Below, in pieces: positions 28,372 to 64,000 of a stretch of 64,000 nt of DNA (position 1 is the stretch's first letter; each line of letters begins with the position of its first letter). The translations under genes and the position numbers were made by a program. Source of the DNA: Diplolepis rosae (taxonomy: Eukaryota; Arthropoda; Insecta; Hymenoptera; Diplolepididae); assembly GCA_030998225.1 (NCBI GenBank), contig JAPYXD010000714.1:2976001-3040000 (forward strand). The letters run 5' to 3'. The notes below the pieces were generated by a model. That model was not told the origin of the DNA and searched no databases. It saw nothing but the letters and a program-made list of their open reading frames with translations.

Positions 28372-28764
28372 TGAAGTTGTTTTTGCATGATCAAGATATT
28401 TTTTCAGTTCTTCCTATATTTGATCTTCAGATGACCTTGAATTTGGTGTGATCAAGACTAACTAACCTTGTATTCGAACTCAGTGACCTCAAACACATAA
28501 GTAATAATTTTTACAGATTTTTCTGACGCATTTTTCTACACTTGACCTTCAAATGTGTTACGTCCCGAGCTAAGGCGAGGGTAGGTTGGGAAAATTAGGA
28601 AAAGGGAGGAAAGTTTGCTGATTAAATCAGAGTGGTAAATTCTGATTATTTATATTTTTGTGGGATCGTGGTCACTAGTCAAACCTATGCGGCTCGAGTT
28701 GTTCACAATAGTAACAAATTTGGTTATATTGCGGTGTACAAGCTTTATTAATTAAAAGATGGAT

Positions 28765-29137
28765 ATACAATAAGTTTTGAGATGCTTATGTGTATGACTT
28801 ATACTACTTCTCAGGATGAGAAGGCAATATTAAGGGTTTTATGCGTTTATGAGTTAGTAATACAGGTTTTGAGATGCCTATATATGTAACTCACGCATTA
28901 AAAGTGTGCGTCTATATAAGTCAATAATACAGGTTTTGAGATGCCTATATATGTGACTTCCGCGTTTAAGTGTGTGCGTCTACAAATTATTAATACAGGT
29001 TTTGAGATGCCTGTATATGTAATTTGTACGTTTTATGCTAATATACTAGGTTTTGAGATGCCTAGGTATACAACTCACGCACTACAATTGGCGTTATAGT
29101 TAATATAATAAGTTTTGAGATGCTTATATATATAACT
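28765..29137 (-). repeat. array of ~6 covarying hairpin units in the 3' LTR
   Basis: Six ~60-bp units each hold the invariant plus-strand core GTTTTGAGATGC. It is flanked by inner arms (ATAAG/CTTAT, ACAGG/CCTGT or CCTAT, CTAGG/CCTAG) and outer arms (GAGTTA/TAACTC, AAGTCA/TGACTT, ACAAATTA/TAATTTGT, TAGTTA/TAACTT). Arm sequences change between units but pairing is mostly kept. Confidence 0.8.
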
Positions 29138-30100
29138 TACGCTTTTTCCTTGCTCGAGAAGGCAAGAGAAAGAGTTTTGTCGTATATTTCTCCTTGTTGA
29201 TAGCTGGATAACGGCACAATCCTGGCTGGAGTTAAGTAGTGCTAGTCAAGTAGTACAGGAAGCGTATCAGACAATCCAACTTGCTTGCTAAACACTGGTT
29301 AAGTTCGTTTTCTGTAGATTTATATCTCAGAACTCGACTTAATACTTAAGGATACTTAAGGACCAGGGATTTTATTTACCAAGTACCGAGGTATTCCTTG
29401 TGTAAGATACCGATTTACGAATATCGAAGGGTCAATTCGTGACACCGACAGTATGACTTGCGGACGGAGTGATTACCGACGTTAAGATCTTGAAGACTGA
29501 ACAGCTACTTAGCGAAAAGACAACCTCCAGAGGTAAATCTGGGGTTTATATATTATTGATTATTCCTATAGTGGGAGAGCATTCATGTTTTCGTGGATCG
29601 GCACGTACCTTGCTACTCGATGGATCGACACGCGTCTGGCAGCAGTGTCATTGACCATACTTGCTGACAATCGCGTAAATGCATGAACTTGCGGCGCGTT
29701 CCCACACAGGTCATACTATCGGGATCAAAGTTCATTCACGCTCAATGCGGTACATCTTTCTCTTGTCTTTTCAGCTATGCTACATAATATGTATATGTTG
29801 ACAGGTCGGTGCAGTTGTACTGAGTTACAAATGCACTGACTCATCTATTATTTTATACATTAGTTTTTAATCTTATTTTCTTATAGTATTTATGTAATAC
29901 ATAATCTTCTAGCGTCTATATTTTGAAATATTATTTACGTTATCTTGCGAATCCCCAATAATGTGATTGATGTTATTGATTATCCATTATTGGTCCTAGT
30001 GTTTGATTATTATTAATAACTATTTAACGACAATAATGAATTTTATTGTTATTTATTTTGTTAAATGATTATTAATGTTACTTATCTGATTTCCTACATT

Positions 30101-30152
30101 ACCGACGGCAAGGCAGTGTTCTTGGTCTATGCAACTCGACTGCCTTGTCGGT
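30101..30152 (-). promoter_or_regulatory. stem-loop near the U3 end of the 3' LTR
   Basis: ACCGACGGCAAGGCAGT pairs with ACTGCCTTGTCGGT (14 bp, one 3-nt bulge) around a 21-nt loop. Lies ~140 bp inside the sense-strand start of the LTR. Also present at 44645-44696. Confidence 0.6.
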
Positions 30153-30292
30153 CTCAGATAATTTCTGACAGGTGTTTCCTACTATCAGTGTTGTAATGAG
30201 GAGACATGTATCAGTTATATCCCTGAGCGTTTGCAGAGTTGCCTAGGCACAGGCGAGAGGAATTAAAATTTTAAAATATCAGGGATGTAACA

Positions 30293-30335
30293 GTCCTCCC
30301 TCCTTAGATTAATCATCGTCCCCGATGATAATATT
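30293..30335 (-). promoter_or_regulatory. polypurine tract and adjoining hairpin of element 1
   Basis: Read on the minus strand: a perfect 7-bp hairpin ATCATCG-GGGA-CGATGAT, then AATCTAAGGAGGGAGGAC, immediately followed by the LTR start TGTTACATCC. The purine-rich tract abutting the 3' LTR is where plus-strand DNA synthesis would be primed. A second copy of hairpin plus tract is at 33306-33345. Confidence 0.85.
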
Positions 30336-30954: not shown

Positions 30955-32309
30955 GTCTTCTGGGTTGGGTCTCTTACATTTCGGTGCGCGATGTCTGAAC
31001 CCCGTGAGAGTAATTTCCGTGCCGTGTTAATCGACGAGTGTATCTCGGGCCAGTCCTCTTCTTGCCTTACCGGGTCCGATAGTCAATTTTATTTAGATAA
31101 TTTTGATTGTAACTTATTTGAATCGGGTCCATCTTTTCCGGATCATTCCCGCGGCACTCTGTCTACTCTCTCAGTAACTGAGAGTTTATCGTCTCGGATT
31201 TCCGCGCTTGAGGATTCAGCGGGGATACATCAGTTTATTGTTTGGCGTGTGCCGGTCTGTCGAGTTGTTCCGGTGCTCGTTTCGTTGGCAAGGGAGCTCC
31301 TTGGATTATCGGTGACGGACTCGGATTTCTGTATTGTTCATCGATTGAAGAAATCTTATAACGGGGTGTTAATCCGCGTTTCTTCTGGAAAAATTAAGGA
31401 TAGTTTTGTTGCTCAGCGTTCTATGCTCGCGCTAAGGGGTTGTTTTGTTGATCTCGCGTAGGTTAGAGTCCTTTTTCTTGTTGTGTTTCCAATTTTTAAT
31501 GTATGGTGTTTTATTCTCTTCTTTCTTTTTTATTTTTGCAGATTCCTATCAACGGGCTCCGCAGGTTCCTGCTCCAGGGTTGCTGAGGCAGGTGTCGAAC
31601 CTGGTGGATACCCTGGTGCCCTGGGTACGACTGATGTGGTTCCTTATCCAGGAGCGACAGGTGGGTCCACCGGAGGCCGAAGAGGGTCCGTCCTGGCGCA
31701 TCCCTGCGTCAACTGCAGATCCATCTGCTATGGAGGCGGCATCGGCGGATCATGTGATTCGTGAGGCGTGTCAGGAGACCTATAACCTCTGTGAGGAGCT
31801 TCATAGCATGGTGTCACGGGATATCTCGCCCTTACCTGCTCAAGCGTCTCGTTGCTGTTCTCACTCAGCACCCTCAGCTTATTGTTTGGGGTAGGTTTGC
31901 CTAATTTCATCCTCTTTCTTTTTTGTTATATATTTATTATATTTTTCTTCTTGTTTTTCTCTTCCTTTGATTAATCGATTTTATCTTATTTTTCAGGATA
32001 CAGGGCACTGAGGAACGTTTTTGCCGGTGTGGGCGATTCATCCGGTTACCACACTCGAGAGACGTCACGAGATGCACCTGTGGCTCGGCTCTGGTGTCCT
32101 ATGAAGGTTAGTTTTTTTCCTTGGTTCTTGTATTTATTTCTTTTTTTTTTTTTTTTTCTTTTAAATTTTTGTCCTGAAGATCTTTTACTAAAATTTTTTG
32201 AAATTTTGTTTCAGCTCCTAGGTCCGTGGTTGTATATCGCAGGCGTCCGATCCTGAGGGGTTATCGTCGGGTTCCAGCTCGTGGAATGCCATACCTGCCT
32301 CGCGTGTGA
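30955..32309 (+). CDS. spliced antisense gene of element 1, FP-like domain and Arg-rich tail
   Basis: Four exons on the strand opposite gag-pol-env. Exon 1: ATG 30991 to 31457. Exon 2: 31542-31890. Exon 3: 31997-32106. Exon 4: 32215 to TGA 32309. Donors GTAGGT, GTAGGT, GTTAGT; acceptors TTTTGCAG, TTTTTCAG, TTGTTTCAG. Exons 2-4 join in one frame with matching phases; exon 1 to exon 2 is one base out, so this copy has an indel or an unseen site. Exon 1 has a short predicted helix (LSSRISALEDS) then LARELLGLSVTDSDFCIVHRL and VLIRVSSGKIKDSFVAQRS, a layout like baculovirus FP25 and LINE ORF1 proteins. Exon 3 is Cys-rich (CRCGRF...CTCGS). Exon 4 is Arg-rich (VVVYRRRPILRGYRRVP). A poly(A) signal AATAAA follows at about 32463. 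Function unknown; RNA or DNA binding is plausible from the composition. Confidence 0.65.
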
Positions 32310-33360: not shown

Positions 33361-35330
33361 TTAGGCAATTCGGATATTTCTAATTGGAAATTTAGTAGTT
33401 TCTGTTTGTAATCGAATTTCGGGGATGTTTACTGGCTGTAAGTATTGTAGTTTTCTTGGTGCCTCTTCCTTTTGAGGGGTTCTTTTTGGGTTTTTTAAAC
33501 ATTTTAGGATTGGATTTTTTCCAAAATAAATCATAATTATTATTATTATGATTATTATTGCACTAGATCCTCCTGTCCAATATTTATTATGTAATTGTTT
33601 ATTAAAAGTTTGTTCTTCGAATTCTGTCAATTGTTCTTCTATGGTTGAAAGTGATTCGTCTGTGTGGAGCCTTTTCCAATTTCCTATGTGAGTTTTTTCC
33701 CACGTAAAAGGTTTTATTTTAGGAAGTTGTTGAATTGTGTCCAACTTTGGAAGAATTTCAGTTATATGGAAAGTAAAATTAGGGTTGTAAATATATTCTT
33801 CTGTCTTTTTATTAATCTGAGTTCCGGTTAGGGTGGTATATTTCGTCCTTGCAGTACATCCTGTACCTAATCGGAGTAGTCCTGAATTGCTGAGGTAGCC
33901 TTTTTCCAGTTTTCCTTTTATGCAGTTAATGCTTATTGGCTCTGGATTTTTTGTTGAATAAATCCAGGCAGATAACGAAGGGATGTAGTTCCAATACATT
34001 TCTTCTTCTATTTTCATCCTGATGTCACAAAGGTGAATGGTATCTTTTGATGGTCTTATTAACATCAAACATTCGCATGAGTTGGTTGTGGAAACTTCGT
34101 GCTTGGGCTGGGTGTTTTCACAGATGGTGTTGTAAAAGGTTTTTTGACAATTATCATAATATTCTTTGCTTACGAGAAAGAATTTTCTTTCATCATTTGC
34201 CAGGGCAATATACGGAGTTTTTGGTATTATATAAATAGATTCTGTTGTATTCGGAGATATTTGTTGATACACTGGATGTGCATAAATTTCATAAAGCTGA
34301 TACCCTGCCTTATCAAGTAAGGGTATGTCGACGGCGATGAGCAGTCGTCCAGAGCTGATTCTAACATCTGTTTTTCCTAATTTTGATAGTTCTTCTGCTC
34401 GAACATGTGAAGTGGGTATTGGAAATTCGTTTTCACTTAATTTAAAATGTATTTCGGTAATGATTTCTTGGAGTTGTTCTTTAGTGAGAAGGAGTGGATG
34501 TAACCTTTTGCTCGTGCTGCTTCTACTATTTTTATAAATTGTTTTAAACTTTCGGCTAAGTGATTAAGTTTTATCTCAATATGGTCAGCCCATTGTCTTA
34601 TTTTTCTGAAATATATGATGTTACTCCAGAATTGGTTATGCGATTCTAGGTTTTTGATGGTCTCGTTTAGTTGTTGTTGTATGTTGGCGATCTCTTGCGA
34701 TTTTTGATTCAATTCTAGGTGAATGTTGTTGATTTCTGATTTGACAATGTGGGTCTGTTTTCTCAAAATTTTGCTAAGGTTATTTTGTCTGTCATGTAGT
34801 TCGTTGATAGCGTTATCATATTCTTCTGCGTCGTCGGAAGTCATCACTCCTATCACTGGTCCAATAATTGATCCGATAAAGCCTAATAGGGGTGCTCTTC
34901 GTTTCTGCATACTTGGGGGTGGGTTTTCTGCTTCTGGTGTATCTTGCTTTATTTCTGTTAACATATTTTTTAATTCTTCATAATTATTTTCGATTTGTTT
35001 GACTTTTCCATTCAACAGGTCTACTCTAACTTCACTTCTGCAGTCTTCTTCTAGGGATTGGTCCAAACATGTTGAATATACGTTGTTTATATCAGTTGAT
35101 ATGTTTTTAGATTGGAGATGGGCTTGTAGGTGCTGTGGATCCATATACACGACAATCCTCCAATATGTATTGGTAATACGTAAGGGCTCAACTTTGGCGT
35201 AAAATAGTCCAGGGTTGTTTCTCAATGGTTGAATTTCATATTGTGTTGGGGTGACTGGGGTTGCAAAAATAATGACGATCAAGATCCAGGTCCATTTTTC
35301 TCGGCCTTGGGTGGGGTTTAGTTGGTCCAT
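33361..35330 (-). pseudogene. env: F-like envelope glycoprotein gene (element 1), frameshifted
   Basis: Two overlapping frames make up env: 35330-34437 and 34272-33361 (the latter frame is open further upstream, to about 34500). The first part has a signal-peptide-like segment (residues 12-29), a basic KRR site at about 143-145 followed by a hydrophobic glycine-rich stretch that fits a fusion peptide, and long helical heptads. The second part has a Cys-rich ectodomain and a membrane anchor of consecutive isoleucines (AIIIIIIIIMIYFG) before a basic tail. This is the layout of baculovirus F and errantivirus Env proteins, which mediate membrane fusion. The frame changes near 34500, so this copy cannot make the whole protein without frameshifting. 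Confidence 0.85.
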
Positions 35331-35615: not shown

Positions 35616-36203
35616 TTATTGAGTGATATAAATTAAATTTTTAATGTTATCTACAGGATCCCAAAAATCCTCTTCCGTAACAGTGTAATTTTCTTTAAAA
35701 TTTTTATTACGTTTTATTATTCTTGAACAATTTTCTACTTTATGTCCTCGTAAATAACAATATTCGCAACATTGTTCCCACTTATATAGCTTAATGAGCA
35801 TCCTACTTTCTTTGTCTTGACACGAAACAAAAATATCTTCTACTTCATTATTAATATTTCGCTCTTCGCTAAAATAATAATTATCCTCTAGTTTTTTTAG
35901 AATTTTCCTTGCTGCCTCATGTTCAGCATTTTTAAGTTTGTTTTCGCCATTACTACTTTCTGAAAAAATCTTATTACGTTTACAATCTTTTATAGTACAT
36001 GATGCGTAAAAGGTCCTATTATGAGCTGGTCCTTCTGACTTTATTAGGATATAAGAGGGTTTGGTAAATCCGTATTCGGCTGATAGCTCTTCCAACGCTC
36101 CCTTTGGATTCTTGAGGTGTTCCACATCTCCTTTGGGATGTATGTATGTGGGATAGATTCGTCCTCTGGGGAGTGGTGAGTCCAAGGTTGTGAGACCAGA
36201 CAT
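35616..36203 (-). CDS. accessory protein: dsRNA-binding domain plus CCHC zinc knuckle
   Basis: A complete 195-codon ORF between pol (stop ~46 bp upstream) and env (start ~285 bp downstream). Residues 31-106 match the double-stranded-RNA-binding fold: ALEELSAEYGF, then PSYILIKSEGPAHNRTF with the hallmark EGPAH-x3-F, a beta segment FYASCTI, and the C-terminal helix KLKNAEHEAARKILKKL. Residues 146-159 form a CCHC knuckle (C-x2-C-x4-H-x4-C). No such gene belongs to the standard gag-pol-env set, and Gag of this element lacks a knuckle. Plausible roles, all inferred: masking dsRNA from Dicer-2 or ADAR, or RNA packaging in place of nucleocapsid. Element 2 carries a related gene (58677-59139). Expression presumably needs splicing or a subgenomic RNA. 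Confidence 0.85.
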   Translation of the reverse strand: MSGLTTLDSPLPRGRIYPTYIHPKGDVEHLKNPKGALEELSAEYGFTKPSYILIKSEGPAHNRTFYASCTIKDCKRNKIFSESSNGENKLKNAEHEAARKILKKLEDNYYFSEERNINNEVEDIFVSCQDKESRMLIKLYKWEQCCEYCYLRGHKVENCSRIIKRNKNFKENYTVTEEDFWDPVDNIKNLIYITQ

Positions 36204-36248
36204 GTCCTTCCTATAATGAGAAGACTATTAGTTTCTAATATTAAGTGA

Positions 36249-38377
36249 TTATTCGTAAGCTATTTTGAGTTTGTCTACGTGTTTTTGGAATAGGGTTTCG
36301 TTTTTGTCTTTCAAAATCGCTGTGTGTTTATCCAAGAGTTTAATAATTTCGAAAGGTCCATAATATTTGCTGTCTAATTTACCGCGTTTTTTTACTTCCT
36401 TTTGTACATAGACTTTATCTCCTACTTTTCCAAGGAACGATCTTGCTTTAGCGTCGTAATTTAGTTTGGAGTTTTGTTTTGCTTTTATCAAATTGTCAGC
36501 TGCCATATTTTTAATTTCTGTTAATCTGCAGATTAATTCTTGTAAATATGAGCCATAGGTCTCTAATTTTTCGTAATTGGGGAATGAACTAGGGGTACGG
36601 GCTATTTTTCTGAACACTAATTCGAATGGGGTGAATTTTGTCGCACTGTGGACAGATGTGTTGTAAGCAAACATGGCGAATGGTAGCAGTTGATCCCAAT
36701 CGTCATAGTTTTCTGCATAGGCTCTAACATAATCCATTAGTACGGCATGGCTCCTTTCTAGTGAACCATTAGATTGTGGTCTATAGCCTGAGGTGGTTAT
36801 TTGTTTTATTCCAAATATTTTTGATAAATTACTCAATAGGTTGTTCACAAATCCTTTTCCTTTATCGGTGAGAATTGCCTTTGGTGCTCCATACTGAGAA
36901 ATAAGGTTTTTTGCTAATGCATGGGCTATTGTTGCTGCTGAGATGTCTGGAATTGGTACTGCTATGCAGTATTTTGAAAGGTTGTCCTGCATGGTTAATA
37001 TGTGCTTATTGCCGTCTGGGGTGGTTGGTAATTTGCCTACAGTGTCTAAAGAAACTTTATCAAAGGTATCCAGGGGTGTATCTGTTATCAACATGGGTTC
37101 ATGAATTTTGGCTCTTACAATTTTTTGTTCTTGACAAATTTTGCATTTTCTTACAAAATCAGTGACTTGTTCCTTGATTCCTGGCCAAAAGTACCTTTCT
37201 CGAATTCTTTGGTATGTTTTGTTAACTCCTTTATGGCCTCCGATCTTACTATTGTGGTTTTCAGAAATTATTTCTAGACGTGACTCCTCAGGGGGTGTAC
37301 TTATATTTCCGTAACACATACTTATCTTTATATTACTATTTTCAAACTCGTTGATTATCATTTTGAGCAGTTCTTCCTTCGTCAGGTCGTCTGTCAAGTC
37401 TCCTTGTCGCGAAATACGAAATTCGGTGATGTTTTCTCTGAATAGAGCCACTCTTAAATTATGGAGGGCTGTTTGGAGAATGGTTTTATCTATGTTGTCG
37501 AAATGTCGGTTTTTTATTATCAGTGAATATACATTATATTGTCCTCTGGGGGTAATCAATACTTCTCCTATTTTTGGCTGTTTAATTTTTAATTCCTGTG
37601 GGTCTATTGCTCCGATGTTGATTAGTAATCTTCCTACAGGGGTAGTTACTTTAACATCAGCAGAAAGAAAATGTACATAATTATTCCTTAAATATGTTAA
37701 GTTTTCTCTGCAACTAAGAACTTTGAAGTTTGTCGTAGGGGCGTTTGAGCTACAACCGGTGGGTAATCCTGGAGGGATGCTGGTGATAAGCTTAGAAGTG
37801 TTTTTAGTCTTGTCATTATGTGTGTTTTCAGAGATTTTTTCCGAAAATTGAGGAATTTCCATGTCCATTCTGCGTGGCTTGTATCTAGTGGATGAAGTTA
37901 CTGTATTGGGGTGGTCTTCTTTATTACTTGAATATGGGGTTGATATCGCTTTAGGTTCTTTGAATGCTGAAGGACTAACGTTTGCTAGCATGTCGGGTGT
38001 TGCAGGTATCTCAGGTCCAAAAGTTACGCTTTTCCGGGTCCGCAGAGGTGGATTGGGGGTAGGTTGATCTTCTTCATCAGAAGATGGGATTCCGGGGTCC
38101 AAATTTTCCTTTGTTTCTGGGTTCACCTCCTTTCCCATTTTTTGTGTTTCTTTCATCAATTTCTGTGCTGTTTCAATTGCTGTTTTAATTCGGTTATCAA
38201 ATTCAGTTTCACTTTCTGGTTCTAGTTTCTTCGTTAAGGGTTTTGCTATTGCGGAGAAGTCTTTTATAAATCTCCGGTAGTATCCTGCTAGCCCTAGGAA
38301 CTGTTTGATATTTTTAGGGTTCTTGGGTTGCGGAAAACATTGTACAGCCTCTATCTTCTTTGGATCGGTTTTACACC
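36249..38377 (-). CDS. pol: pol, 3' part: RT thumb/connection, macro-like segment, integrase
   Basis: Open from about 38377 to the stop at 36249, one base out of frame with the RT ORF. It begins with the gypsy RT connection (FLGLAGYYRRFIKDF). RNase H should follow, but no TDAS-type motif is present; instead a Pro/Asp/Glu-rich linker leads to ~110 residues around LINIGAIDPQEL, GEVLITPRGQYNVYSLIIK and FRISRQGDL, which look like an alternating alpha/beta macro-like fold (inference). Integrase then has the HHCC finger (GGHKGV ... CKICQ), DDE core (VSLDTVGK; ILTDKGKGF; NGSLERSH) and a GPY/F module (KYYGPFEIIKLL). The enzyme inserts the cDNA into nuclear DNA. Integrase motifs appear intact. Confidence 0.88.
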
Positions 38378-39917
38378 TTCGCTGCTAATGATGTGACCCA
38401 AGTAAGCTATTTCTTTAAATAGAAATTCACATTTTTCGGGTTGCAGAGACAGGTTTGCTTCTTTTAATCGTTTTAGGAGTCTTCTTACCTTTTTTCCGTG
38501 TTCTTCTAGATTGTTTGCGTATACAACTATGTCGTCTAGGTATACGAATAGTTCTGTTCCTTGCAGTCCTATTAACACTTGATCCATTAGCCGTTGGAAT
38601 GTGGCTGGTGAATTTTTTAATCCCATGGGCATTCTGACATATTCATAATGCCCATTTAATGATGAGAAAGCTGTCTTAGGTCTGTCCGCAGGGTCTAGTT
38701 CTATCTGGTGAAATCCACTCGCAAGGTCAAATACTGAAAAATATTGGGCCCTACCTAAATGATCAAGAATTTCGGAAATATTTGGCAGAGGGTAAGCATC
38801 GCCAATCGTCTTTTCATTGAGAAGGCGGAAGTCGATCACTATTCTCCATTTTCTTTTTCCGGTGTGGTCCAATTTTTTAGGTATAATTAGTAATGGAGAG
38901 TTGTAGGGTGATTTTGAATTTTGAATGGCTCCTTCAGTTTTCATTTTAGTTATGACGCGTTCTATTTCTTCTTTCTGAGCTGGTGAAAACCGGTAAGGGC
39001 GGGTGTTTATCGGTATTTCGTCTGTTGTATGTATTTTATGTTGTACCAGATGTGTAGAGGTTAGTGGTTCCCCAGGCAGATAAAAGCTATCTGGAAACTC
39101 TCGCACTATTTCTATAACGTGCTCCTTTTCTTCTTGATTGAGATGATCTAACTGTAATTTGTCAATTACTTCCTCTATTTTGCCTCTTTCACATTTGAAA
39201 TTTTCAGCTAAAAAATATTCGTCTGAATCTTCTCCTGGTAAATTATAATATTCGAAGGGTATTAATTCTTGTGGGGGTATTTCAATGCTTAAATCTTTTT
39301 CAGTTGTGTTGATTGCTAATACGTGGCAAATTCCGTTTGCGTTTGTTACAGCTGCTTCACCCACTAGTACTCCTTCTGTAGTTTTAATTAAGGGTAGATA
39401 ACCTTCTTTTAATTCTGTATTTGTGACTTCTACGGGGATTACTCGTTTAGTTCTGGCTTTGATATGGATAGGTCCTAATGATGTCCCTTTGTAGCCTTCC
39501 ATATTTTCCTGGGCTATTTTGGATTCTTCGTCTACAAATGGTACAGGTTTGGTTGGGTTGGAATGAGTGACGATTGTGTTGTGCCAAAATGAAATCTCTA
39601 CCTTTTCTTGTCGGAGGTATTCTCTTCCTAAAATCCCGTCGGTGTTGATAGGAAAATCTGGTTCTGTGACGTGAAAGGTCACTATTGAGTTTTTAATTTT
39701 TATTTGAACGGTTCCAAGGGTTGAAATCTTATTCTGGGTTATTCCAGCTATTTCAATTGCTTCATTGTGTGATACCATAATGTCTTCGTCGAGTGAGCTT
39801 AGCTTAATTATGTTTACGTCTGCTCCAGTGTCGACTAGTAATTGGGCCTTGTTTTCTTTAAAATTGGGTGAGCTGATCTCTACTACTGGTGATTCTCTCC
39901 TAAATTTTGTGCACAGG
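38351..39917 (-). CDS. pol: pol, 5' part: protease and reverse transcriptase
   Basis: Open in the -1 frame from the end of gag. Near the start it has the aspartic protease active site LLVDTGADVN and the flap/GILGREYL end. The RT domain follows: PYRFSPAQKEEIERVI, KWRIVIDFRLLNEKT, FSVFDLASGFHQIELD, AFSSLNGHYEYVRMPMGLKN, and the catalytic VYLDDIVVYA. The frame ends at 38351 just after EGVKP, where a one-base loss in an A run (about 38375-38380) shifts out of the downstream pol frame. The first ATG-like start (39778) lies inside protease; translation instead enters from gag by frameshift (see 39901-39907). Confidence 0.93.
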
Positions 39918-41007
39918 ACTTTCTTTGCTGCATTAATATCCTCACACTGCTTTGACGCTCTTTTTGGTCTGTGCTCGTCGTCGCGTCCTCTCGGCGAGCA
40001 AGGCTGGAGTTTAAATGTTCTGTGTTTGATGGAGATGGGGATGGCGTACGAGGGGGGTTGGTGGGGTTCTTATAGGGGTAGTTAGGGTTTGGATATGGAA
40101 TAGGGTGATTTGGGTAATAAGGATATGGTTGATAGGGTGGATATGGGGGGTATGGATAGGGGTGGGGGGAACTGCTGGGGTAGTTTTGTTCCGTTGGGAA
40201 ATGGTTTCGTCTATTTAATCTAGGTGAATTTTGCCTATCTTCATTGGGTCTATTTCTTTCTGGGGAGGCCGCAAATCGGACATGCGGACTAGGGCTGCGA
40301 TCACGCATTCCTGAATATGCAGGTTGAGCAAAATTTCTGTCATAAAAATTATTATGTGGGGATTGAGGGTTTAACTGATGTCTTGATTCGTATTCTATGG
40401 CATATTTTAGAGCTGCTTCTATTGAATTTGGATTTCGGCTTTCTACTGCTCCCGAGAGTCCATCTGGAAGTCCACGAATAAAAGATTCTAACGCACAATC
40501 GTTGAGAGGGGCTAACAATAGATCCGCGTTATCGTATTTATCTTCTAGTGCGGCTTGCGCACCAGATTTTAATAATGTAAGGCGATCGTAGTATTCACTT
40601 ACACTTTCGTTACGGGTCATTTTGATGTTCGAAATTTCGTGTGTGTACCAGGTATATGACTTGTGAGGAGCAAACCGTTGTTTGAGGTGGTCAATCAAGT
40701 CCTTCATGGAGAAAAAACTTTTTCCGTGTGTGCTATCTCTTGCTGCTCCCTTCAGTCGGGAGAGAACCGCCCTGATATACTGTTTTTCACAGTTGGTAGG
40801 TATGCTGGCTTCTCCGTTTATCACGTCCTGAATAAAGTCTCTTACTGGCATATTTTTACCATTAAATATCGGCACATTCATTATGCCTTGTTGAATAGCA
40901 AAACATTCTGCCATGGATGTTACCATTGCGTCGTTTAAGGTACGTGAGATGTCGCCGGTAAAATCGGTTGTTCCGGTCTTGTCTGATCGAATGCTGTCTT
41001 TGAGCAT
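39883..41007 (-). CDS. gag: gag of element 1
   Basis: A 374-codon ORF starting at ATG 41007. The middle matches the gypsy-group capsid region (FAPHKSYTWYTHEISNIKMT, NESVSEYYDRL, ALESFIRGLPDGL). The C-terminal third is Pro/Tyr/Asn-rich low complexity (repeated YP and PYPP) and the end is basic. No CCHC zinc knuckle is present, as in errantivirus Gag. Gag should form the cytoplasmic particle that packages genomic RNA. The stop at 39883-39885 lies 15 nt beyond a slippery heptamer leading into pol. Confidence 0.88.
   Translation of the reverse strand: MLKDSIRSDKTGTTDFTGDISRTLNDAMVTSMAECFAIQQGIMNVPIFNGKNMPVRDFIQDVINGEASIPTNCEKQYIRAVLSRLKGAARDSTHGKSFFSMKDLIDHLKQRFAPHKSYTWYTHEISNIKMTRNESVSEYYDRLTLLKSGAQAALEDKYDNADLLLAPLNDCALESFIRGLPDGLSGAVESRNPNSIEAALKYAIEYESRHQLNPQSPHNNFYDRNFAQPAYSGMRDRSPSPHVRFAASPERNRPNEDRQNSPRLNRRNHFPTEQNYPSSSPHPYPYPPYPPYQPYPYYPNHPIPYPNPNYPYKNPTNPPRTPSPSPSNTEHLNSSLARREDATTSTDQKERQSSVRILMQQRKSCAQNLGENHQ
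39901..39907 (-). promoter_or_regulatory. -1 ribosomal frameshift heptamer A_AAT_TTA (gag-pol)
   Basis: In gag frame the codons read CAA AAT TTA GGA, giving X_XXY_YYZ = A AAT TTA, the same heptamer as used by Rous sarcoma virus. Slipping back one base gives AAA TTT AGG, exactly the frame open through protease. The gag stop follows 5 codons later. Confidence 0.75.
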
Positions 41008-41499: not shown

Positions 41500-43020
41500 T
41501 GTTTTATTATTATTTGAGTTTGGTTAGTTGCCATATAATGTAGCCAACTTTATTATTATTATTTAGTATAACTATTGATTTTGAATTTCAATTTGTTTTT
41601 GTTGAAGAATTTATGCTGTAGTTTTAACGCACTGTCGATTTTGATCGCGATGTATGCAGGTACTCTACGTTCTTAGCCTTGAATGCTATGAATTCAGTGA
41701 TGCAAAGGGGGTCAGGTCAGACGTATTTAATATTCGCCTGAGTGAATATTACACTTGTTATTTTAATAGTTGTTTAAGAGAATTAACAAAAGTTATTTTG
41801 AGCGATATGAAATTGGACAAGTTAGATTTAATGAAAATGCGCGAACAATTCTGACAATTATAAAATTTGTTTATTGCTAACAAATAACAAAATTGTTTAT
41901 TTTTACAGAATTTTAGTGATGTAAGATTGGACAAACTAGACTCAAGCACAATTTTTGGACAATCTTCACATTCAAAAATATTCTGTTAGTTAATTAAGTT
42001 GAAAATTGCAGTTTATAAACAATACAATACGAGCACTTCAAATTTTGCCTTACCCAATGATCGAAATCACTGGTGACCGTTCAACGTACCTAAAAAGGAC
42101 TTATACTCTTGAAGGCTGTTTTTTGTTTGTATTAAACTCAATCTAAAACTTAGTTAACAATTTGTGATTGGAAACAAACTGTTATATTTTAAGTAAATTT
42201 GATGAAATGTTCACTGTTTAATTTATTTTTGATTTGATTTTACTGTGATATAAATTTTATTTATTTCGTTTGCCTTTTTATGTGTTTTTATTTATTTTAT
42301 TAGATTTCAATAATTTCAGTTATTCAAGATTGGGCAAACAAAATCTTGACTAATTTTAGGAATTAGAGAAATTATTTAGTTGGGTATAAATTATTGGCAA
42401 TTATTAGTTTAAGTAATGCAAAATTAGACAAGCATGACTCAAGCACAAATTCCTGAATAATTTTTGCATTTACAAAAACTACAATATGTCGATAATTCAA
42501 TTATTTATAGAATACAATTGAGAATTTTAGTGATGCAAGATTGGACAAACCAGACTCAAGCACAACACTTTGGACAATCTTATGCAATCACAAATATTCT
42601 TTCAATTGTTTAAAGTGAAAATGAAAGTTATAAACAATACTTGACACACACTACGAACTTTGCCTTGCCCAGATGATCGAAACCACTGGTGACCGTTCAA
42701 CGAATCTAAGAAGGACTTATACTCTCGAGTGCAGTCTTTGTTCTGTTTAAAACTTAGATAATAACTTATTTTGTTTAAATAATTATTCCAAAAATGTTTT
42801 AATTTTGAAAAGCGAGAATAATTTTTAATTAATTCCGACTATTTGAAATTCAACAATTTTAAATTTACTTATTTCAATTTATTCATTAATAATTTAGAAA
42901 ATTTCCGAAATGTGAAGCTTAATAGTTATGTAACAATCTAAATTTTCCGAAATGATTGTACATGTAATTTTGTCGCTTCAAATTATAAATTTGGAATTTA
43001 TTATTAATTGTGACAACAAT
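41500..43020 (-). repeat. leader repeats of element 1
   Basis: Two ~243-bp direct copies lie at about 41909-42152 and 42522-42765 (GATTGGACAAAC.AGACTCAAGCACAA ... ACTGGTGACCGTTCAACG ... AAGGACTTATACTCT). Weaker versions of the ATTGGACAA..GACT unit occur near 41812, 42333 and 42425. Position between primer site and gag is where gypsy carries its insulator repeats; no known factor site is recognised. Confidence 0.75.
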
Positions 43021-43052: not shown

Positions 43053-44835
43053 TGTTACGTCCCGAGCTAAGGCGAGGGTAGGTTGGGAAAATTAGGAAAA
43101 GGGAGGAAAGTTTGCTGATTAAATCAGAGTGGTAAATTCTGATTATTTATATTTTTGTGGGATCGTGGTCACTAGTCAAACCTATGCGGCTCGAGTTGTT
43201 CACAATAGTAACAAATTTGGTTATATTGCAGTGTACAAGCTTTATTAATTAAAAGATAGATATACAATAAGTTTTGAGATGCTTATGTGTATGACTTATA
43301 CTACTTCTCAGGATGAGAAGGCAATATTAAGGGTTTTATGCGTTTATGAGTTAGTAATACAGGTTTTGAGATGCCTATATATGTAACTCACGCATTAAAA
43401 GTGTGCGTCTATATAAGTCAATAATACAGGTTTTGAGATGCCTATATATGTGACTTCCGCGTTTAAGTGTGTGCGTCTACAAATTATTAATACAGGTTTT
43501 GAGATGCCTGTATATGTAATTTGTACGTTTTATGCTAATATACTAGGTTTTGAGATGCCTAGGTATACAACTCACGCACTACAATTGGCGTTATAGTTAA
43601 TATAATAAGTTTTGAGATGCTTATATATATAACTTACGCTTTTTCCTTGCTCGAGAAGGCAAGAGAAAGAGTTTTGTCGTATATTTCTCCTTGTTGATAG
43701 CTGGATAACGGCACAATCCTGGCTGGAGTTAAGTAGTTCTAGTCAAGTAGTACAGGAAGCGTATCAGACAATCCAACTTGCTTGCTAAACACTGGTTAAG
43801 TTCGTTTTCTGTAGATTTAACTCTCAGAACTCGACTTAATACGACGATACACGTATTTAACGGCACTTATTAATTCACGACCACCGGACTTGCACCACTT
43901 AAGGACCAGGGATTTTATTTACCAAGTACCGAGGTATTCCTTGTGTAAGATACCGATTTACGAATATCGAAGGGTCAATTCGTGACACCGACAGTATGAA
44001 TTGCGGACGGAGTGATTACCGACGTTAAGATCTTGAAGACTGAACAGCTACTTAGCGAAAAGACAACCTCCAGAGGTAAATCTGGGGTTTATATATTATT
44101 GATTATTCCTATAGTGGGAGAGCATTCATGTTTTCGTGGATCGGCACGTACCTTGCTACTCGATGGATCGGCACGCGTCTGGCAGCAGTGTCATTGACCA
44201 TACTTGCTGACAATCGCGTAAATGCATAAACTTGCGGCGCGTTCCCACACAGGTCATACTATCGGGATCAAAGTTCATTCACGCTCAATGCGGTACATCT
44301 TTCTCTTGTCTTTTCAGCTATGCTACATAATATGTATATGTTGACAGGTCGGTGCAGTTGTACTGAGTTACAAATGCACTGATTCATCTATTATTTTATA
44401 CATTAGTTTTTAATCTTATTTTCTTATAGTATTTATGTAATACATAATCTTCTAGCGTCTATATTTTGAAATATTATTTACGTTATCTTGCGAATCCCCA
44501 ATAATGTGATTGATGTTATTGATTATCCATTATTGGTCCTAGTGTTTGATTATTATTAATAACTATTTAACGACAATAATGAATTTTATTGTTATTTATT
44601 TTGTTAAATGATTATTAATGTTACTTATCTGATTTCCTACATTACCGACGGCAAGGCAGTGTTCTTGGTCTATGCAACTCGACTGCCTTGTCGGTCTCAG
44701 ATAATTTCTGACAGGTGTTTCCTACTATCAGTGTTGTAATGAGGAGACATGTATCAGTTATATCCCTGAGCGTTTACAGAGTTGCCTAGGCACAGGCGAG
44801 AGGAATTAAAATTTTAAAATATCAGGGATGTAACA
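43053..44835 (-). repeat. 5' LTR of element 1
   Basis: 1783 bp. Same ends and internal organisation as 28556-30292. Carries ~46 bp more than the 3' LTR in the segment 43841-43898, plus a few substitutions. The hairpin array is at ~43262-43634 and the U3 stem-loop at ~44645-44696. Confidence 0.95.
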
Positions 44836-44839
44836 AATG

Positions 44840-48470: not shown

Positions 48471-49225
48471 TTACGATGTCGTAAATGATACCGATTACGA
48501 CCTTTTTTTTATTAAATAAGACAAAATATTTTATTATTGTTACAATTCAAATCTATTTTACTGTATGAAAGGAATATGAAGCCAATATAAATTAATAAAA
48601 ACATATTATATGTGTGTATTTAATTTCGAACGATTGTGAATATTTGTGTGCCGTTCCGAATTTGCACTCTTCACAGTGTTCCTGAAGCATGCAAAAGTGG
48701 TCCAAAAATGGATCCAAAATCCGCTAACGTAGAAAGTTTCTACATCATTTGTAGATGAAAAAAATGAAAAATTGAAAATCCTAAGTGATCGGTTTCGAAA
48801 GTTACGGACGTTTTTGTATTTACGCTATGCGCGCTCATGAAGTGCTATAAGTAGAGCTTTCGAGGCCACATGTGCAATCCGTTTTTTAACTATAAATCAA
48901 GTAAATTGAGCTGTTATTCAGTATTTATTGTTAATTATAGTATTTTTTCAACAATTTATTGTTATGTTGATAAATTATTTACTTGGCTTAATGAACAATC
49001 CAAAACTTGAAAGGTTTAATCTTCCATTTATCTCAAAATGCGTCAGCTAATTTTTATAGAGTTCTTTTTTTTTTCTAAATATATGCCAATTTTCAGCTTC
49101 TATTTATACCGCTGGGTGGCGCATGCTAATCTGTGAGAGGAAAATTCATGTTGAAGTAACATATATACCGAAGAAAAATCCACAAAACCTCTTTGAGTTG
49201 CATTTTTGAAACTTATGTTTTAAAA

Positions 49226-51244
49226 ATGACTCCGCCGTGTTCTCATCAGGATAATAGAAAAAAAGTATGTGGCCCCTGTGGTCGAAAAATTATCTTTGGC
49301 AAAATTAAGCCAGACAAATTTTTAATAAGTCAATCTACTGAAAGACTTATAAAAAAGTCCAAAGGGCACATTAAAGTTGAGAAAGGCAGAGGGAAATTTA
49401 GAGATATAAATAAAGAAATTGATATTTCTACTGGCTTTTATGAATCACACAAACTAGAGAAGCTTTCATTGAATAAAAGTAGTGATTCTGTTGATCTTAA
49501 TAAATATTGCAGCAAGTGTTATCAAGAAATAAAAAGAGGTAAAACTCATACTTGCAAAAATCTTAGGGATAATATAATAAGCTTGGTTGAGAAACTCCCA
49601 GAAAAAGTACAACAGCAAATTGCCACGCATGTTATTAAAAACAATCTAGAATCTCAACCTGATCTAAATGGCAGACGAGTCAATGTCGACTTGAACTTAA
49701 GTACTGCTGGGCAAAGTACAAGGATCACAGTAAATAAGATTGATAAGACAGTGTTCTTCGATGAAGATAAATTAGATAATTTTCGAGTCCAACTAGCAGC
49801 TTCACAAAGAGAAATGAAAAAAATTACAAATTTCATAAGGTGTAATGTGGGTAGAATGTCTATTCCAAAAAACTACAGAGAGCATATGTCAAAAAAGTCT
49901 AAAGAATTAAAAGATGTTTACAAATCAGGTGTACATGAATTTGATTGTGAAAGCGGAACAGACGCAGAAAAGCAATCACGCCCTGTTGTCTATGCCAACG
50001 CAGAAGAACTTTTAGACAAAGTTATCGAAAGTAGAGGATTAGTGGGCAATTTTTGTATCAAAGCTATGGCTGATGGTGGACAAAATTTTTTCAAAATTAG
50101 TTTATGTATTATGCCTGCTAGTTATTCACCTAAAAATGAAGAAAGTTCCATGCAAGAAAATTGTTATGACGAAAGTGATCCAGAAGATTCAGTTGATTTC
50201 AATTGTCCCAAAAAAAGAACGCTGTACTCTGAGGGAGGTCGCTTAAGCAAAAAAGGTAAGCTATCAAGTGTCAATAAGTTGATATTGTTGTGTGTGGTTC
50301 CTGGAATCAAAGAAACTCACGCAAATATTCAGCTTTTATTTGATTTGACTAAACTTAATGATATCCCCTTTAAATTTGTTGCAGACTTTAAGCTTTTGCT
50401 GATTGTAAATGGTCAACAAACTGCAACTTCGTCATATCCTTGTCCGTACTGCTTCGTCTCTCTAAATGAATTGAGACGCAAATCGACTCCAGATACAAGT
50501 TTGAATGGCAACACTACTTCAAATGAATCTGATGAACTGGAAGTCGCAAATGCTACGAAGTTAAAAACATTTGGCGATTTAAGAAGAGATTTCGATAGAT
50601 ATCAACTTTTAAGAAATCAAGGAGAAGAAAAGGAATGTAGTAGGATGTGTCACAGCACAATTAATCCTCCCATTTTTGATGAAAAAGATGATGTTTGTGT
50701 TTTGGAGAAATGTGTTATACCTGAATTACATGTCCTGCAAGGCTTCGTAAACCACTTATTTTGGCAAGGTTTGGTTTCCCTTTTAGGCTTAGAAAAAGCT
50801 CTATTATGGCCACACAAACTCAATCTTATTTCAAAAAATTATCATGGCGATGCTTTTGAGGGCAATGCGTGTAGGAAGCTTGTGAAAGAGTCTGATAGAC
50901 TCAAAGATATTGAAATATGTGGAGAGGTAGGTATTTTTAAAATTTTACCTTTTATTGCAGCTTTTAAAGCTATGGACAAGGTGGTAAACTGTTGTTTCAC
51001 CTCTGGAAAAGTAGGATCTTCACTTGATGATTATATTGAAGAATTAAAACAAGCTTTGGAAAGTATTGAACAGCTTTCAGAGACATTAAAAATTCATGTT
51101 ATTCTTTCACACGTAAAAGAAGGTTTTAAGTTTATTGAAAACAATAATGGCTTAGGTTTTTGGTCAGAGCAGAGTGGTGAGTCAATTCATCGTGACTTCT
51201 TAAAGTTTTGGGAACGTTACAAAGTAAATGGTTATCACCGTTAA
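49226..51244 (+). CDS. transposase-like protein, 672 aa, family unplaced
   Basis: Single uninterrupted ORF from ATG 49226 (frame open from 49193 without ATG). N-terminal Cys pairs CGPCGRK and CSKCYQEIKRGKTHTC look like zinc fingers for DNA binding. Candidate acidic catalytic positions lie in MADGGQNFFKIS (about residue 282), KFVADFKLLL (about 383), and Glu in WSEQSGESIHRDFLKFW (about 650). In between is a conserved-looking Cys motif SSYPCPYC and GFVNHLF. I have seen this layout as uncharacterised proteins in Hydra and aphids (memory, not checked). Its TIR context makes transposase the best reading. No frameshift: the most intact mobile-element gene in the window. Confidence 0.75.
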   Translation: MTPPCSHQDNRKKVCGPCGRKIIFGKIKPDKFLISQSTERLIKKSKGHIKVEKGRGKFRDINKEIDISTGFYESHKLEKLSLNKSSDSVDLNKYCSKCYQEIKRGKTHTCKNLRDNIISLVEKLPEKVQQQIATHVIKNNLESQPDLNGRRVNVDLNLSTAGQSTRITVNKIDKTVFFDEDKLDNFRVQLAASQREMKKITNFIRCNVGRMSIPKNYREHMSKKSKELKDVYKSGVHEFDCESGTDAEKQSRPVVYANAEELLDKVIESRGLVGNFCIKAMADGGQNFFKISLCIMPASYSPKNEESSMQENCYDESDPEDSVDFNCPKKRTLYSEGGRLSKKGKLSSVNKLILLCVVPGIKETHANIQLLFDLTKLNDIPFKFVADFKLLLIVNGQQTATSSYPCPYCFVSLNELRRKSTPDTSLNGNTTSNESDELEVANATKLKTFGDLRRDFDRYQLLRNQGEEKECSRMCHSTINPPIFDEKDDVCVLEKCVIPELHVLQGFVNHLFWQGLVSLLGLEKALLWPHKLNLISKNYHGDAFEGNACRKLVKESDRLKDIEICGEVGIFKILPFIAAFKAMDKVVNCCFTSGKVGSSLDDYIEELKQALESIEQLSETLKIHVILSHVKEGFKFIENNNGLGFWSEQSGESIHRDFLKFWERYKVNGYHR

Positions 51245-62407: not shown

Positions 62408-64000
62408 TTATTCGTAGTCTAAGTTAAATGTTAAGTCAGTGAGTAAAGGTTTCTCTACTGAGCTTAAAGGAGTTTTTTGTATAAGTTCTATACGTGTTGG
62501 CGTTTTGTTTATTTTTCTAGATATTTTTTGAATTTTCAATAGTAATAATCCTACAATTGTAATCATAAGTAAAGTGATAAATATTAGTGCTAATGTCAAT
62601 TTATGTGCACTAGAAATAAAAATTGATGGAATGATTTTTTGAATGTTTGCATATTTTGTAAGGATAAAGACATGGTTTTCGAAGATTAATAATGGCATGT
62701 CTTCTTTTTGCTGAAGAAGAAGTAATACCTTTTTTAGTAAGTGAGGCTCTTGAATGGAAATATTATATAAAAATGGTGAAATTATAGCAAGGGAAGTAGT
62801 TGATTTGCTGACTGGAATCGAATTATCCATTATATTTAAATGGTTTTGAAGAAGGTAATATGGAGTTGATGAATCTAGATTGCAACCTGATTTTGTTTGC
62901 AAAATTCCTATTCCTTGGAGTGTGATTAAGGTCTTAGAGTTTTTTCGACATGATAAGAAAATTTGTCGGGGGAAAATTGCTGAGTATAGCCATCCATGAT
63001 GAAATTGCAATGGTATTAGAAAGGGATATTCACTAAAACTGATGAATATTTTACACTTGTATGGTTCTGAATTTAGAAACATTGATGTTTCACAAATAGG
63101 ATTGTTATCGATGTTAGATACAGATCTTGGTGGGTGACAAAATGTTTGGAATCCATTTTGATAACATGCATTGAGGAAATTTTCATTTGTTATAAAGTAT
63201 GATTGGTTATTTGAAGAAATAGCGAGATAAGAATTTTGAGGTTTTATGTAAATAGAGGAAATTACGTCAGTATTAAAATCGAGATGTATTGGAATTGGAT
63301 GTGGTTTAAATAATTGAAATTCTTCAGCAGATGGGATTGGTATAGTCATAATAAAAATCAAGTACTTATCGAATAAGAAGTATTGTATTTTAGAAAATGG
63401 AAGGACCATAGAAAAAAGGGACGTTGAAAGGTGTGGGTCTTCTTTGTTGGATTTGAAGTCTAAGAAGGTATCAGGAAGTAGCATAGGGTGCCATAAATTA
63501 GTTGCGGCATGGGTAATAGCTTCTGTAAGTTGGTCAAGGAGTAAAAGAAAAGATTGAGAAATTTCATGCAGGTCTTTAAGCCAATTTGCTGCTAATATTC
63601 GATATAGGTGAATATTTGGATCTTTTTGAGAATTATGCCATTTTTTGTAGGTCATAATGTTGTCAAGTTTTGAAGAAAGATTTGTAACTTTTTGGAAAAA
63701 TGGATTAGGAAGTAGAAATAAATTTTCTTTGGGCCAGTAAAGGGAGGTTTCATTTCTCATTCTTAATTCTAAAAGTACTTTTTGTATCTGTTGCAAGAAT
63801 GGATCATTAGTGTTAGAAATATTCGTGATATTACGAGCTTGTCTAGATATAAATGATATTTCTTCAAGAAAATAGTTGATGCGTTGTTCTATAAAATCAA
63901 GTTGTGTCTGATGATCGTATAAATTACAATTATTGGCAATATTTGAGAGTATGCAATATTCATATAATTTATGTGAGAAATCTATTATTTTGTATTTAAG
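62408..64000 (-). CDS. env: F-like envelope glycoprotein (element 2), N-terminus beyond window
   Basis: The frame is open from the window edge at 64000 to the stop at 62408, over 520 codons. It begins in a helical heptad region, continues through a Cys-rich ectodomain (NACYQNGFQTFCHPP, NPICETSMF, PYKCKIF, FLSCRKN, KSGCNLDSS) and has a membrane anchor LTLALIFITLLMITIVGLLLL before a short basic tail. Segments parallel element 1 Env in order: SIYIKPQNSYLAIS with SIYIIPKTPYIALA; the Trp-x-Tyr-Ser motif; TKSGC with LGTGC. Errantivirus/baculovirus F-type fusion protein is the best reading. No break seen in this part. Any signal peptide and cleavage site lie outside the window. Confidence 0.82.
   Translation of the reverse strand, partial: LKYKIIDFSHKLYEYCILSNIANNCNLYDHQTQLDFIEQRINYFLEEISFISRQARNITNISNTNDPFLQQIQKVLLELRMRNETSLYWPKENLFLLPNPFFQKVTNLSSKLDNIMTYKKWHNSQKDPNIHLYRILAANWLKDLHEISQSFLLLLDQLTEAITHAATNLWHPMLLPDTFLDFKSNKEDPHLSTSLFSMVLPFSKIQYFLFDKYLIFIMTIPIPSAEEFQLFKPHPIPIHLDFNTDVISSIYIKPQNSYLAISSNNQSYFITNENFLNACYQNGFQTFCHPPRSVSNIDNNPICETSMFLNSEPYKCKIFISFSEYPFLIPLQFHHGWLYSAIFPRQIFLSCRKNSKTLITLQGIGILQTKSGCNLDSSTPYYLLQNHLNIMDNSIPVSKSTTSLAIISPFLYNISIQEPHLLKKVLLLLQQKEDMPLLIFENHVFILTKYANIQKIIPSIFISSAHKLTLALIFITLLMITIVGLLLLKIQKISRKINKTPTRIELIQKTPLSSVEKPLLTDLTFNLDYE

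What the first reader, a model, noticed from the sequence alone, without database searches (positions are those of the whole stretch)
35616..36203. Retroelement-encoded dsRNA-binding protein with a zinc knuckle
A complete ORF between pol and env carries a textbook dsRNA-binding domain (EGPAH-x3-F and the AAxxxL helix) and a CCHC knuckle. The usual gag-pol-env set of insect env-bearing gypsy elements has no such gene. Because insects silence transposons and viruses through Dicer-2 siRNAs, a dsRNA binder is a natural counter-defence or ADAR shield. An alternative is RNA packaging, since Gag here has no knuckle of its own. I know of no described errantivirus gene of this kind, but that is memory, not a search.
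Basis: partly seen in the sequence, partly recalled or inferred. Interest (0 to 1): 0.88.

Follow-up and report, generated by a model that had tools for sequence, protein, structure and literature searches.

The report
Retroelement gene with dsRNA-binding domain
A family of virus-like jumping genes carries an extra gene, between its polymerase and envelope genes, that joins a double-stranded-RNA-binding domain to a retrovirus-type zinc knuckle; it recurs in many copies, shows signs of selection, and probably handles or hides the element's RNA from host defences.

Summary
The ORF lies on the minus strand (36203..35616, 195 aa) between pol and env of a 16.3-kb LTR element. It has a dsRBD (Pfam dsrm 2.4e-10; alpha-beta3-alpha model; nearest solved folds Loqs, Xlrbpa, TARBP2) and a CX2CX4HX4C knuckle. 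It is not unique to this insertion: the host genome gave 150 scored matches (the cap), in two clades about 50% identical. In 40 of 40 loci examined the gene sits between pol and env; median dN/dS is 0.34 (clade A) and 0.17 (clade B); a splice-acceptor-like YAG lies 7 nt before the ATG in 38 of 40. Two further lineages (another capped 150 matches) carry a homologous dsRBD+knuckle gene; where read, also a two-dsRBD gene, a chuvirus-type glycoprotein and a weak CARD-like ORF. Pol carries a TARG1-type macro domain. Best reading: a captured accessory gene acting on RNA, most likely against Dicer-2-type sensing. Against it: clade B and lineages D/E lack GPxH, and in clade B the knuckle is the most constrained part, so packaging or export stays open. 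Ten literature searches (capped listings) showed no retroelement gene of this kind. Host not identified; nothing tested at the bench.

The parts
35616..36203 (-). dsRBD + CCHC accessory ORF (195 aa), the finding
   Evidence: ORF; dsrm 2.4e-10; model
35889..36107 (-). dsRNA-binding domain (residues 33-105)
35727..35768 (-). CCHC zinc knuckle (residues 146-159)
   Evidence: strict spacing in 22 of 28 family proteins that reach it
36211..36224 (-). splice-acceptor-like site TCTTCTCATTATAG, 7 nt before the ATG
   Evidence: rank 11 of 810 AGs by a home-made matrix; YAG at 7 nt in 38 of 40 loci, at 6 nt in one more, absent in one (read by eye)
43053..44835 (-). 5' LTR (1783 bp)
   Evidence: 17 substitutions in 1737 aligned positions against the 3' LTR
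28556..30292 (-). 3' LTR (1737 bp)
30293..30304 (-). polypurine tract AGGAGGGAGGAC before the 3' LTR
   Evidence: read by eye
28552..28555 (.). target-site duplication AATG, left copy
44836..44839 (.). target-site duplication AATG, right copy
39883..41007 (-). gag ORF (374 aa), no zinc knuckle
   Evidence: Retrotrans_gag 3.3e-5, 24.5 bits against a cut-off of 24.1; no CX2C
38351..39778 (-). pol part 1: reverse transcriptase; protease motif DTGADVN lies just upstream in the same open frame (38351-40069)
   Evidence: RVT_1 8.4e-37
36249..38159 (-). pol part 2: linker, macro domain, integrase
   Evidence: Integrase_H2C2 1.1e-21, rve 9.6e-10
37281..37730 (-). TARG1/OARD1-like macro domain inside pol, before integrase
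   Evidence: PDB phmmer 4j5q 1.9e-5; Foldseek TARG1 2.8e-10, TM 0.84 on target; Pfam-A finds no macro family
34437..35330 (-). env, first piece (baculovirus F type)
   Evidence: Baculo_F 9.2e-18
33361..34272 (-). env, second piece, separated from the first in this copy
   Evidence: Baculo_F 2.1e-20

Best explanation
The ORF is a captured accessory gene of a lineage of env-bearing Ty3/gypsy elements. A dsRBD of the kind found in Dicer-partner proteins (TARBP2/Loqs class, most like their second domain) was joined to a retroviral-type CCHC knuckle, and the gene is probably expressed from a spliced mRNA, like env. Its most likely job is to act on the element's own structured or double-stranded RNA so that the host siRNA machinery (Dicer-2 with R2D2/Loqs) does not process it, either by covering the RNA or by competing with the host dsRBD partner. 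Shown: domain, knuckle, position, copy number (lower bound), selection, fast divergence between lineages, and the acceptor-like site. Inferred: capture from a host gene, splicing, RNA binding, and the anti-RNAi effect.
For: dsRBD fold with nearest solved relatives among Dicer partners and Xlrbpa. Among six host loci compared (L023-L028), the window dsRBD matches best the second dsRBDs of two Loqs/TARBP2-like genes (35.7%, E 2.7e-8 and 29%, 3.5e-7, E for those six loci only). Two basic residues at the start of helix 2 (positions 89, 91) are kept in 40 of 40 copies, and GPAH in 20 of 20 clade A copies. Selection: median dN/dS 0.34 within A, 0.17 within B. Fast turnover, as in host-facing genes: A-B median dN 0.45 for the dsRBP against 0.37 env-a, 0.33 macro, 0.14 integrase; L057-L059 dN 0.37 (dsRBD+CCHC) and 0.54 (two-dsRBD gene) against 0.05 for integrase. 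Company: macro domain in pol; a two-dsRBD gene next door in D/E, in L057 best matched in the PDB by R2D2, weakly (0.0013). Precedent: iridovirus 340R, a dsRBD with 30-aa and 73-aa flanks, blocks Dicer-2 and needs both the dsRBD and its C-terminal part (PMC4231766; abstract and section 17 read). Nearest viral predicted structures are dsRBD proteins of a nudivirus and an iridovirus and VP8 of Kadipiro virus. Insect ERVs are reported as siRNA targets (PMC4246233, passages).
Against: Clade B has N instead of the GPxH histidine in 20 of 20 copies, and E stands at the third basic position of helix 2 in 40 of 40. In 340R, alanine at what I align with that position (K89, by residue numbers) lost suppressor activity, though RNase III-type dsRBDs also have E there. 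D/E proteins lack GPxH. In clade B the knuckle segment is more constrained (dN/dS 0.09) than the dsRBD (0.19); in clade A the knuckle segment shows dN 0.023 with no synonymous change, so no constraint can be claimed there. The clade B protein P0007 scores slightly better with dsRBD1 than dsRBD2 of the TARBP2-like protein, and Foldseek ranks Loqs dsRBD1 first, so the source domain is not settled. Fast divergence can also mean weak constraint; between L057 and L059 dS is higher too for the accessory genes (1.9-2.2 against 1.1-1.2), so part of it may be older divergence through recombination. No binding, expression or small-RNA data exist here.
Confidence: 0.5

Rival explanations
1. It is a detached nucleocapsid or RNA chaperone: Gag has no knuckle, and this protein supplies dsRBD + CCHC in trans to select, dimerise or package the genomic RNA.
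For: Gag and the pol frame lack a knuckle. The CCHC has the usual Gag spacing, the lowest dN/dS of five segments in clade B (0.09), is kept per residue in 29 of 30, 28 of 30, 26 of 31 and 26 of 29 family proteins with a residue there, and is present in the D and E proteins read.
Against: It is made from its own ORF after pol rather than as part of Gag, so it would have to be recruited. It diverges faster than integrase and env-a between A and B. In clade A the knuckle segment shows no sign of constraint. Errantivirus Gags in general lack a knuckle and still work (recalled, no call).
Confidence: 0.25
2. It is an RNA-export or splicing regulator (Rev/CERV-like) that binds a structured region of the intron-containing genomic RNA and takes it to the cytoplasm.
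For: The acceptor-like sites before the dsRBP and env ORFs would mean that unspliced RNA must escape splicing. Cer1, a C. elegans Ty3/gypsy element, has an accessory protein (CERV) with a cysteine loop needed for export (PMC10309623, passages).
Against: No structured RNA target was sought here. No localisation signal was examined. The dsRBD relatives are Dicer partners.
Confidence: 0.15
3. The dsRBD has become a protein-binding (type B) domain that sequesters a host dsRBD protein or Dicer without binding RNA.
For: RNA-contact residues are changed in clade B and D/E while fold residues stay. Type B dsRBDs of Loqs, TRBP and PACT bind proteins instead of RNA (PMC5716075, abstract and passages).
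Against: Clade A copies keep GPAH, and clade C proteins keep P-x-H (P0018, P0022 the whole GPxH, P0020 VPPH). In the pairwise test dsRBD3 of the TARBP2-like protein gave no signal (Z -0.7 to 0.3) while dsRBD1 and 2 did.
Confidence: 0.1

Closest known systems
Iridovirus IIV-6 340R (viral suppressor of RNAi)
   Same: One dsRBD with short N-terminal and about 70-90-residue C-terminal parts; a virus-encoded small protein (PMC4231766)
   Different: 340R belongs to a DNA virus, and no knuckle is mentioned in the section read; our dsRBD lacks the third basic residue, and no suppressor activity is shown
TARBP2 / Loquacious / R2D2 (Dicer partners)
   Same: Closest dsRBDs by sequence and among the closest by fold
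   Different: They have two or three dsRBDs and no CCHC knuckle (recalled); they are host genes
Cer1 CERV and MDG1-group sORF1/sORF2 (accessory genes of Ty3/gypsy elements)
   Same: Extra, non gag-pol-env genes of LTR elements with reported functions (PMC10309623, PMC11952523, passages)
   Different: No dsRBD reported in the passages seen; different position or function
Anakin (BEL/Pao element with a chuvirus glycoprotein)
   Same: An LTR element that captured a chuvirus glycoprotein, as lineages D/E did (PMC7642597, passages)
   Different: Anakin is BEL/Pao and no dsRBD gene is mentioned in the passages seen; D/E have a baculovirus-F-type env as well

Membership tests
dsRBD (dsrm, PF00035) | Profile match above Pfam's cut-off | tested here: met
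   41.3 bits, cut-off 23; P0007, P0009, P0018, P0020, P0022 also above it; below it are P0003 (18.0), P0017 (21.0, partial) and the lineage E copy (20.8); P0006 and P0013, which lack much of the domain, have no match
dsRBD (dsrm, PF00035) | alpha-beta3-alpha fold | tested here: met
dsRBD (dsrm, PF00035) | RNA-contact residues: GPxH loop and basic residues at the start of helix 2 | tested here: inconclusive
   Clade A: GPAH 20/20, basic 89 and 91 20/20, third position E 20/20. Clade B: H to N 20/20, basic 89 and 91 20/20, E 20/20
dsRBD (dsrm, PF00035) | Binds dsRNA | not testable with these tools
   Needs a binding assay
CCHC zinc knuckle | CX2CX4HX4C | tested here: met
   22 of 28 family proteins reaching the region; D (L057) and E (L059) proteins too (sequences)
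env-bearing Ty3/gypsy element (errantivirus-like) | LTRs, TG..CA, 4-bp TSD, gag, PR-RT-(RH)-IN order, baculovirus-F-type env | tested here: met
   RNase H is missing in the window copy but present in sibling L053
env-bearing Ty3/gypsy element (errantivirus-like) | RT phylogeny inside genus Errantivirus | not tested
   No named reference RTs were compared
Viral suppressor of RNAi | Suppresses an RNAi reporter or Dicer-2 processing | not testable with these tools
   Bench assay needed
Macro domain, TARG1/OARD1 type (pol) | Macro fold | tested here: met
   Model pLDDT 77.8; Foldseek TARG1 4j5r 2.8e-10

The most novel reading that the evidence does not exclude
This genome hosts a lineage of 'complex' endogenous retroviruses of the Ty3/gypsy type. 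Beside gag, pol and env they carry a set of captured counter-immunity genes: a TARG1-type macro domain in pol, a dsRBD-plus-knuckle protein, and in sister lineages also an R2D2-like two-dsRBD protein, a CARD-like protein and a second, chuvirus-derived envelope. It would be an invertebrate parallel to the accessory genes of complex vertebrate retroviruses, aimed at Dicer-based and ADP-ribose-based defence.
Probability: 0.5. Interest if true: 0.93.

Novelty: new variant of a known kind. Interest (0 to 1): 0.84.

Why it matters
Whether transposons of animals, and not only exogenous viruses, carry dedicated suppressors of siRNA defence is, to my knowledge, an open question. Here is a dsRBD gene that travels with LTR elements, is under purifying selection in the two clades tested, recurs in two capped lists of 150 scored matches over four lineages, and changes fast between lineages, together with a macro domain. 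That makes the question testable with small purified proteins. It also shows an endogenous retrovirus-like lineage with more accessory genes than the usual gag-pol-env set.

Tried and rejected
Viral-contig scans with the dsRBP alignment (75 pattern matches, 0 relatives) and with RT (2 pattern matches, 0 relatives) gave nothing. The scan of prokaryote genome contigs gave 2 loci at 35% identity over the dsRBD only, not examined further. Chance motif rejected: profile, fold, homologs and dN/dS agree. Host-gene insertion unique to this copy rejected. A macro-domain call by Pfam failed; sequence and fold against the PDB succeeded. P0061 suggested an AP-endonuclease (APEX1-type) part upstream of the macro domain, but the sibling copy L053 has only RNase H and linker there, so I do not count it as part of this element. 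Clade C (P0018, P0020, P0022) was seen only as database proteins. The dsRBD tree places the out-groups inside clade A with middling support and was not used. My first idea that the KKxAK region was lost was softened after the pairwise alignment showed a one-residue insertion. The neighbours of lineage E copies were read at one locus only (L059). A loose pattern count of the acceptor gave 39 loci at 7 nt and 1 at 6 nt; the printed sequences show no YAG at L051, so I use 38 and 1.

Full report

THE ELEMENT. LTRs of 1783 and 1737 bp differ at 17 of 1737 aligned positions plus one gap. Ends are TG..CA, the target duplication is AATG and a polypurine tract precedes the 3' LTR. On the minus strand follow gag (Retrotrans_gag 3.3e-5), protease motif and RT (RVT_1 8.4e-37), a macro domain, integrase (H2C2 1.1e-21; rve 9.6e-10), the dsRBP, and a baculovirus-F-type env. 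Gag and the PR-RT frame hold no CX2C. This copy is damaged: pol is interrupted after RT and lacks RNase H, and env lies in two ORFs. In the sibling L053 RNase H is present (7.6e-37).

NOT UNIQUE. A protein search found 17 relatives and, with an 11-sequence profile, 57 at E up to 0.1. I treat the first 51 as the family; the other six (E 2.6e-3 or worse) are five RNase III-type proteins and one TARBP2-like protein. All 51 carry only the source tag 'ena', without names. The host genome (758 Mb, unnamed) gave 150 scored matches, the cap, out of 1916 first-look candidates. By my hand count of its rows with at least 176 matched residues, 37 of 48 clade A-like rows (64-100% identity) and 49 of 72 clade B-like rows (45-52%) have no stop; such lists favour intact copies. 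I examined 20 clade A loci (the best 20, the window's own among them) and 20 clade B loci (picked from stop-free rows, a bias). In 40 of 40 pol lies upstream and env downstream of the dsRBP. Two database proteins show the same neighbourhood: P0017 (clade A) runs from integrase into the dsRBD, and P0051 (clade B) from the end of pol into the dsRBP start.

SELECTION. Median dN/dS (Nei-Gojobori) of the dsRBP is 0.34 within A (159 pairs) and 0.17 within B (177 pairs), beside 0.25/0.11 for integrase (18 and 17 copies), 0.54/0.18 for the macro domain (19 and 15) and 0.36/0.23 for the first env piece (17 and 16) (pairs with dS of 0.02 or less dropped, copies with under 80% coverage dropped; 3 of the 20 A copies of the dsRBP hold a stop). 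By segment in B: knuckle region 0.09, linker 0.18, dsRBD 0.19, tail 0.19, N-terminus 0.38. In A: tail 0.07, linker 0.31, dsRBD 0.35, N-terminus 0.38, and in the knuckle region dN 0.023 with dS 0, which is no sign of constraint. Between A and B, dS is saturated or undefined. Median dN is highest for the dsRBP (0.45), then env-a 0.37, macro 0.33, integrase 0.14. So the gene is kept in each clade and changes fast between clades. That fits a host-facing gene, but weak constraint could look alike.

RNA-CONTACT RESIDUES. Clade A keeps GPAH in 20 of 20 copies; clade B has N for the histidine in 20 of 20. Basic residues at 89 and 91 are kept in 40 of 40. Position 94, the third basic place of the usual KKxAK (motif recalled), is E in 40 of 40. 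RNase III-type domains in the same alignment also have E there. In the wider family H stands in 14 of 37 proteins with a residue at that place and N in 20 of 37; the strict knuckle is in 22 of 28. A single dsRNA-binding mode is therefore not proven for the whole family.

EXPRESSION. An acceptor-like site ends 7 nt before the ATG: TCTTCTCATTATAG in most A copies and ATTTTCTTTTACAG in most B copies, while the DNA around it differs. YAG stands at 7 nt in 38 of 40 loci and at 6 nt in L052; L051 has none there, and L045 keeps the CAG but has lost the pyrimidines (read by eye). In the window it ranks 11th of 810 AGs by a matrix I wrote from recalled frequencies; a site before env ranks 16th, and stronger-scoring sites exist elsewhere. 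This suggests a spliced mRNA; no transcript was seen. In the D and E loci printed, no equally clear site lies directly before the dsRBD+CCHC start.

TWO MORE LINEAGES. Searching the genome with a TARBP2-like protein led to elements with a macro-integrase part 38-41% identical to ours (3 of 5 stretches). Lineage D was read at five loci (L054-L058). A two-dsRBD ORF, a dsRBD+CCHC ORF and a baculovirus-F-type env follow each other in 5 of 5 (some broken), with a chuvirus-type glycoprotein match before them in 5 of 5 and a CARD-like ORF match in 4 of 5; integrase was seen in 3 of 5 stretches. Pfam at L057: glycoprotein 7e-248, two-dsRBD ORF dsrm 6.6e-8, dsRBD+CCHC ORF dsrm 7.7e-5 (just above the cut-off), env 2.2e-24, CARD 0.0021 (below the cut-off). 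The two-dsRBD protein matches R2D2 best in the PDB, weakly (0.0013). Lineage E was read at one locus, L059, whose env is the ORF at the right edge of the window (62408-64000). It has the same order; there the dsRBD+CCHC ORF scores 20.8 bits, below the dsrm cut-off of 23, and CARD 0.014; a PDB search with that CARD-like ORF gave only one unrelated weak match. Profile comparison of the A/B/C family (A3) with D/E proteins (A7, 3 sequences) gives 96% probability, E 1.4e-9, over dsRBD and knuckle together. The genome has 150 scored matches to the D gene, again the cap (1593 candidates); by hand count 125 of 150 rows are near 52% identity to the D query, as L059 is, and 120 of those 125 have no stop; of the 25 D-like rows 14 have none. 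Between L057 and L059 dN is 0.05 for integrase, 0.10 for the glycoprotein, 0.29 CARD-like, 0.37 dsRBD+CCHC, 0.54 two-dsRBD, 0.60 env; dS is 1.1-1.2 for the first two, 1.9-2.2 for the last three and undefined for CARD, so saturation or recombination blurs the comparison; dN/dS is 0.04, 0.09, then 0.20, 0.25 and 0.29.

MACRO DOMAIN. Pol residues 144-293 match TARG1/OARD1 (1.9e-5). The model (pLDDT 77.8) matches TARG1 at 2.8e-10, TM 0.84 on the target. Pfam-A reports no macro family. Lysine and aspartate aligned to what I recall as TARG1's catalytic pair are present in the window copy. Activity is unknown.

MECHANISM. I favour an accessory protein acting on RNA to blunt Dicer-2-type processing (0.5), over packaging (0.25), export (0.15) and a purely protein-binding dsRBD (0.1). 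The precedent for the first is 340R (PMC4231766; outline with abstract and section 17 read). Precedents for accessory genes in LTR elements are CERV (PMC10309623), sORF1/2 (PMC11952523) and Anakin (PMC7642597), of which I saw passages only. Term searches inside four papers on insect ERVs showed no dsRBD gene of an element (PMC13172572 no hits, PMC12992720, PMC5408687, PMC4246233 passages). I also saw the outline and passages of PMC12440569, passages of PMC5716075 and the abstract of PMC10809485. That no such retroelement gene is in print rests on ten searches of the held open-access library, whose listings were capped (for example 20 of 1,456, 12 of 123); most subscription papers and Repbase are not in it.

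LIMITS. The host species is unknown. Counts of copies are capped. RT phylogeny was not tested. No experiment was possible.

Noticed in passing
window 37281-37730 (minus): TARG1/OARD1-type macro domain inside pol, between linker and integrase; relatives P0058-P0061 keep it at 49-97% identity.
   Followed up: yes
window 62408-64000 (minus) and L059: A second element at the right edge of the window with baculovirus-F-type env; beyond the window it carries dsRBD+CCHC, two-dsRBD, chuvirus-type glycoprotein and CARD-like ORFs.
   Followed up: partly
L054-L058: Elements with two envelope-type genes (chuvirus-type glycoprotein and baculovirus-F type) and two dsRBD genes between pol and the last env.
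   Followed up: partly
P0061 residues 1-103: APEX1-like AP-endonuclease half in frame with a macro-integrase pol protein; not seen in the sibling copy L053.
   Followed up: partly
L053 1633-6738: In one copy, which lacks the end of integrase and the start of the dsRBP, the pol frame runs on into the dsRBP as one open frame of 1701 codons.
   Followed up: no
window 41907-42138 and 42521-42754: 80% identical direct repeat in the leader between 5' LTR and gag.
   Followed up: no
window 30991-31894 (plus): ORFs on the other strand between env and the 3' LTR without Pfam match (first one tested), perhaps a later insertion.
   Followed up: no
window 49193-51244 (plus): 683-aa ORF without Pfam family above cut-off.
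   Followed up: no
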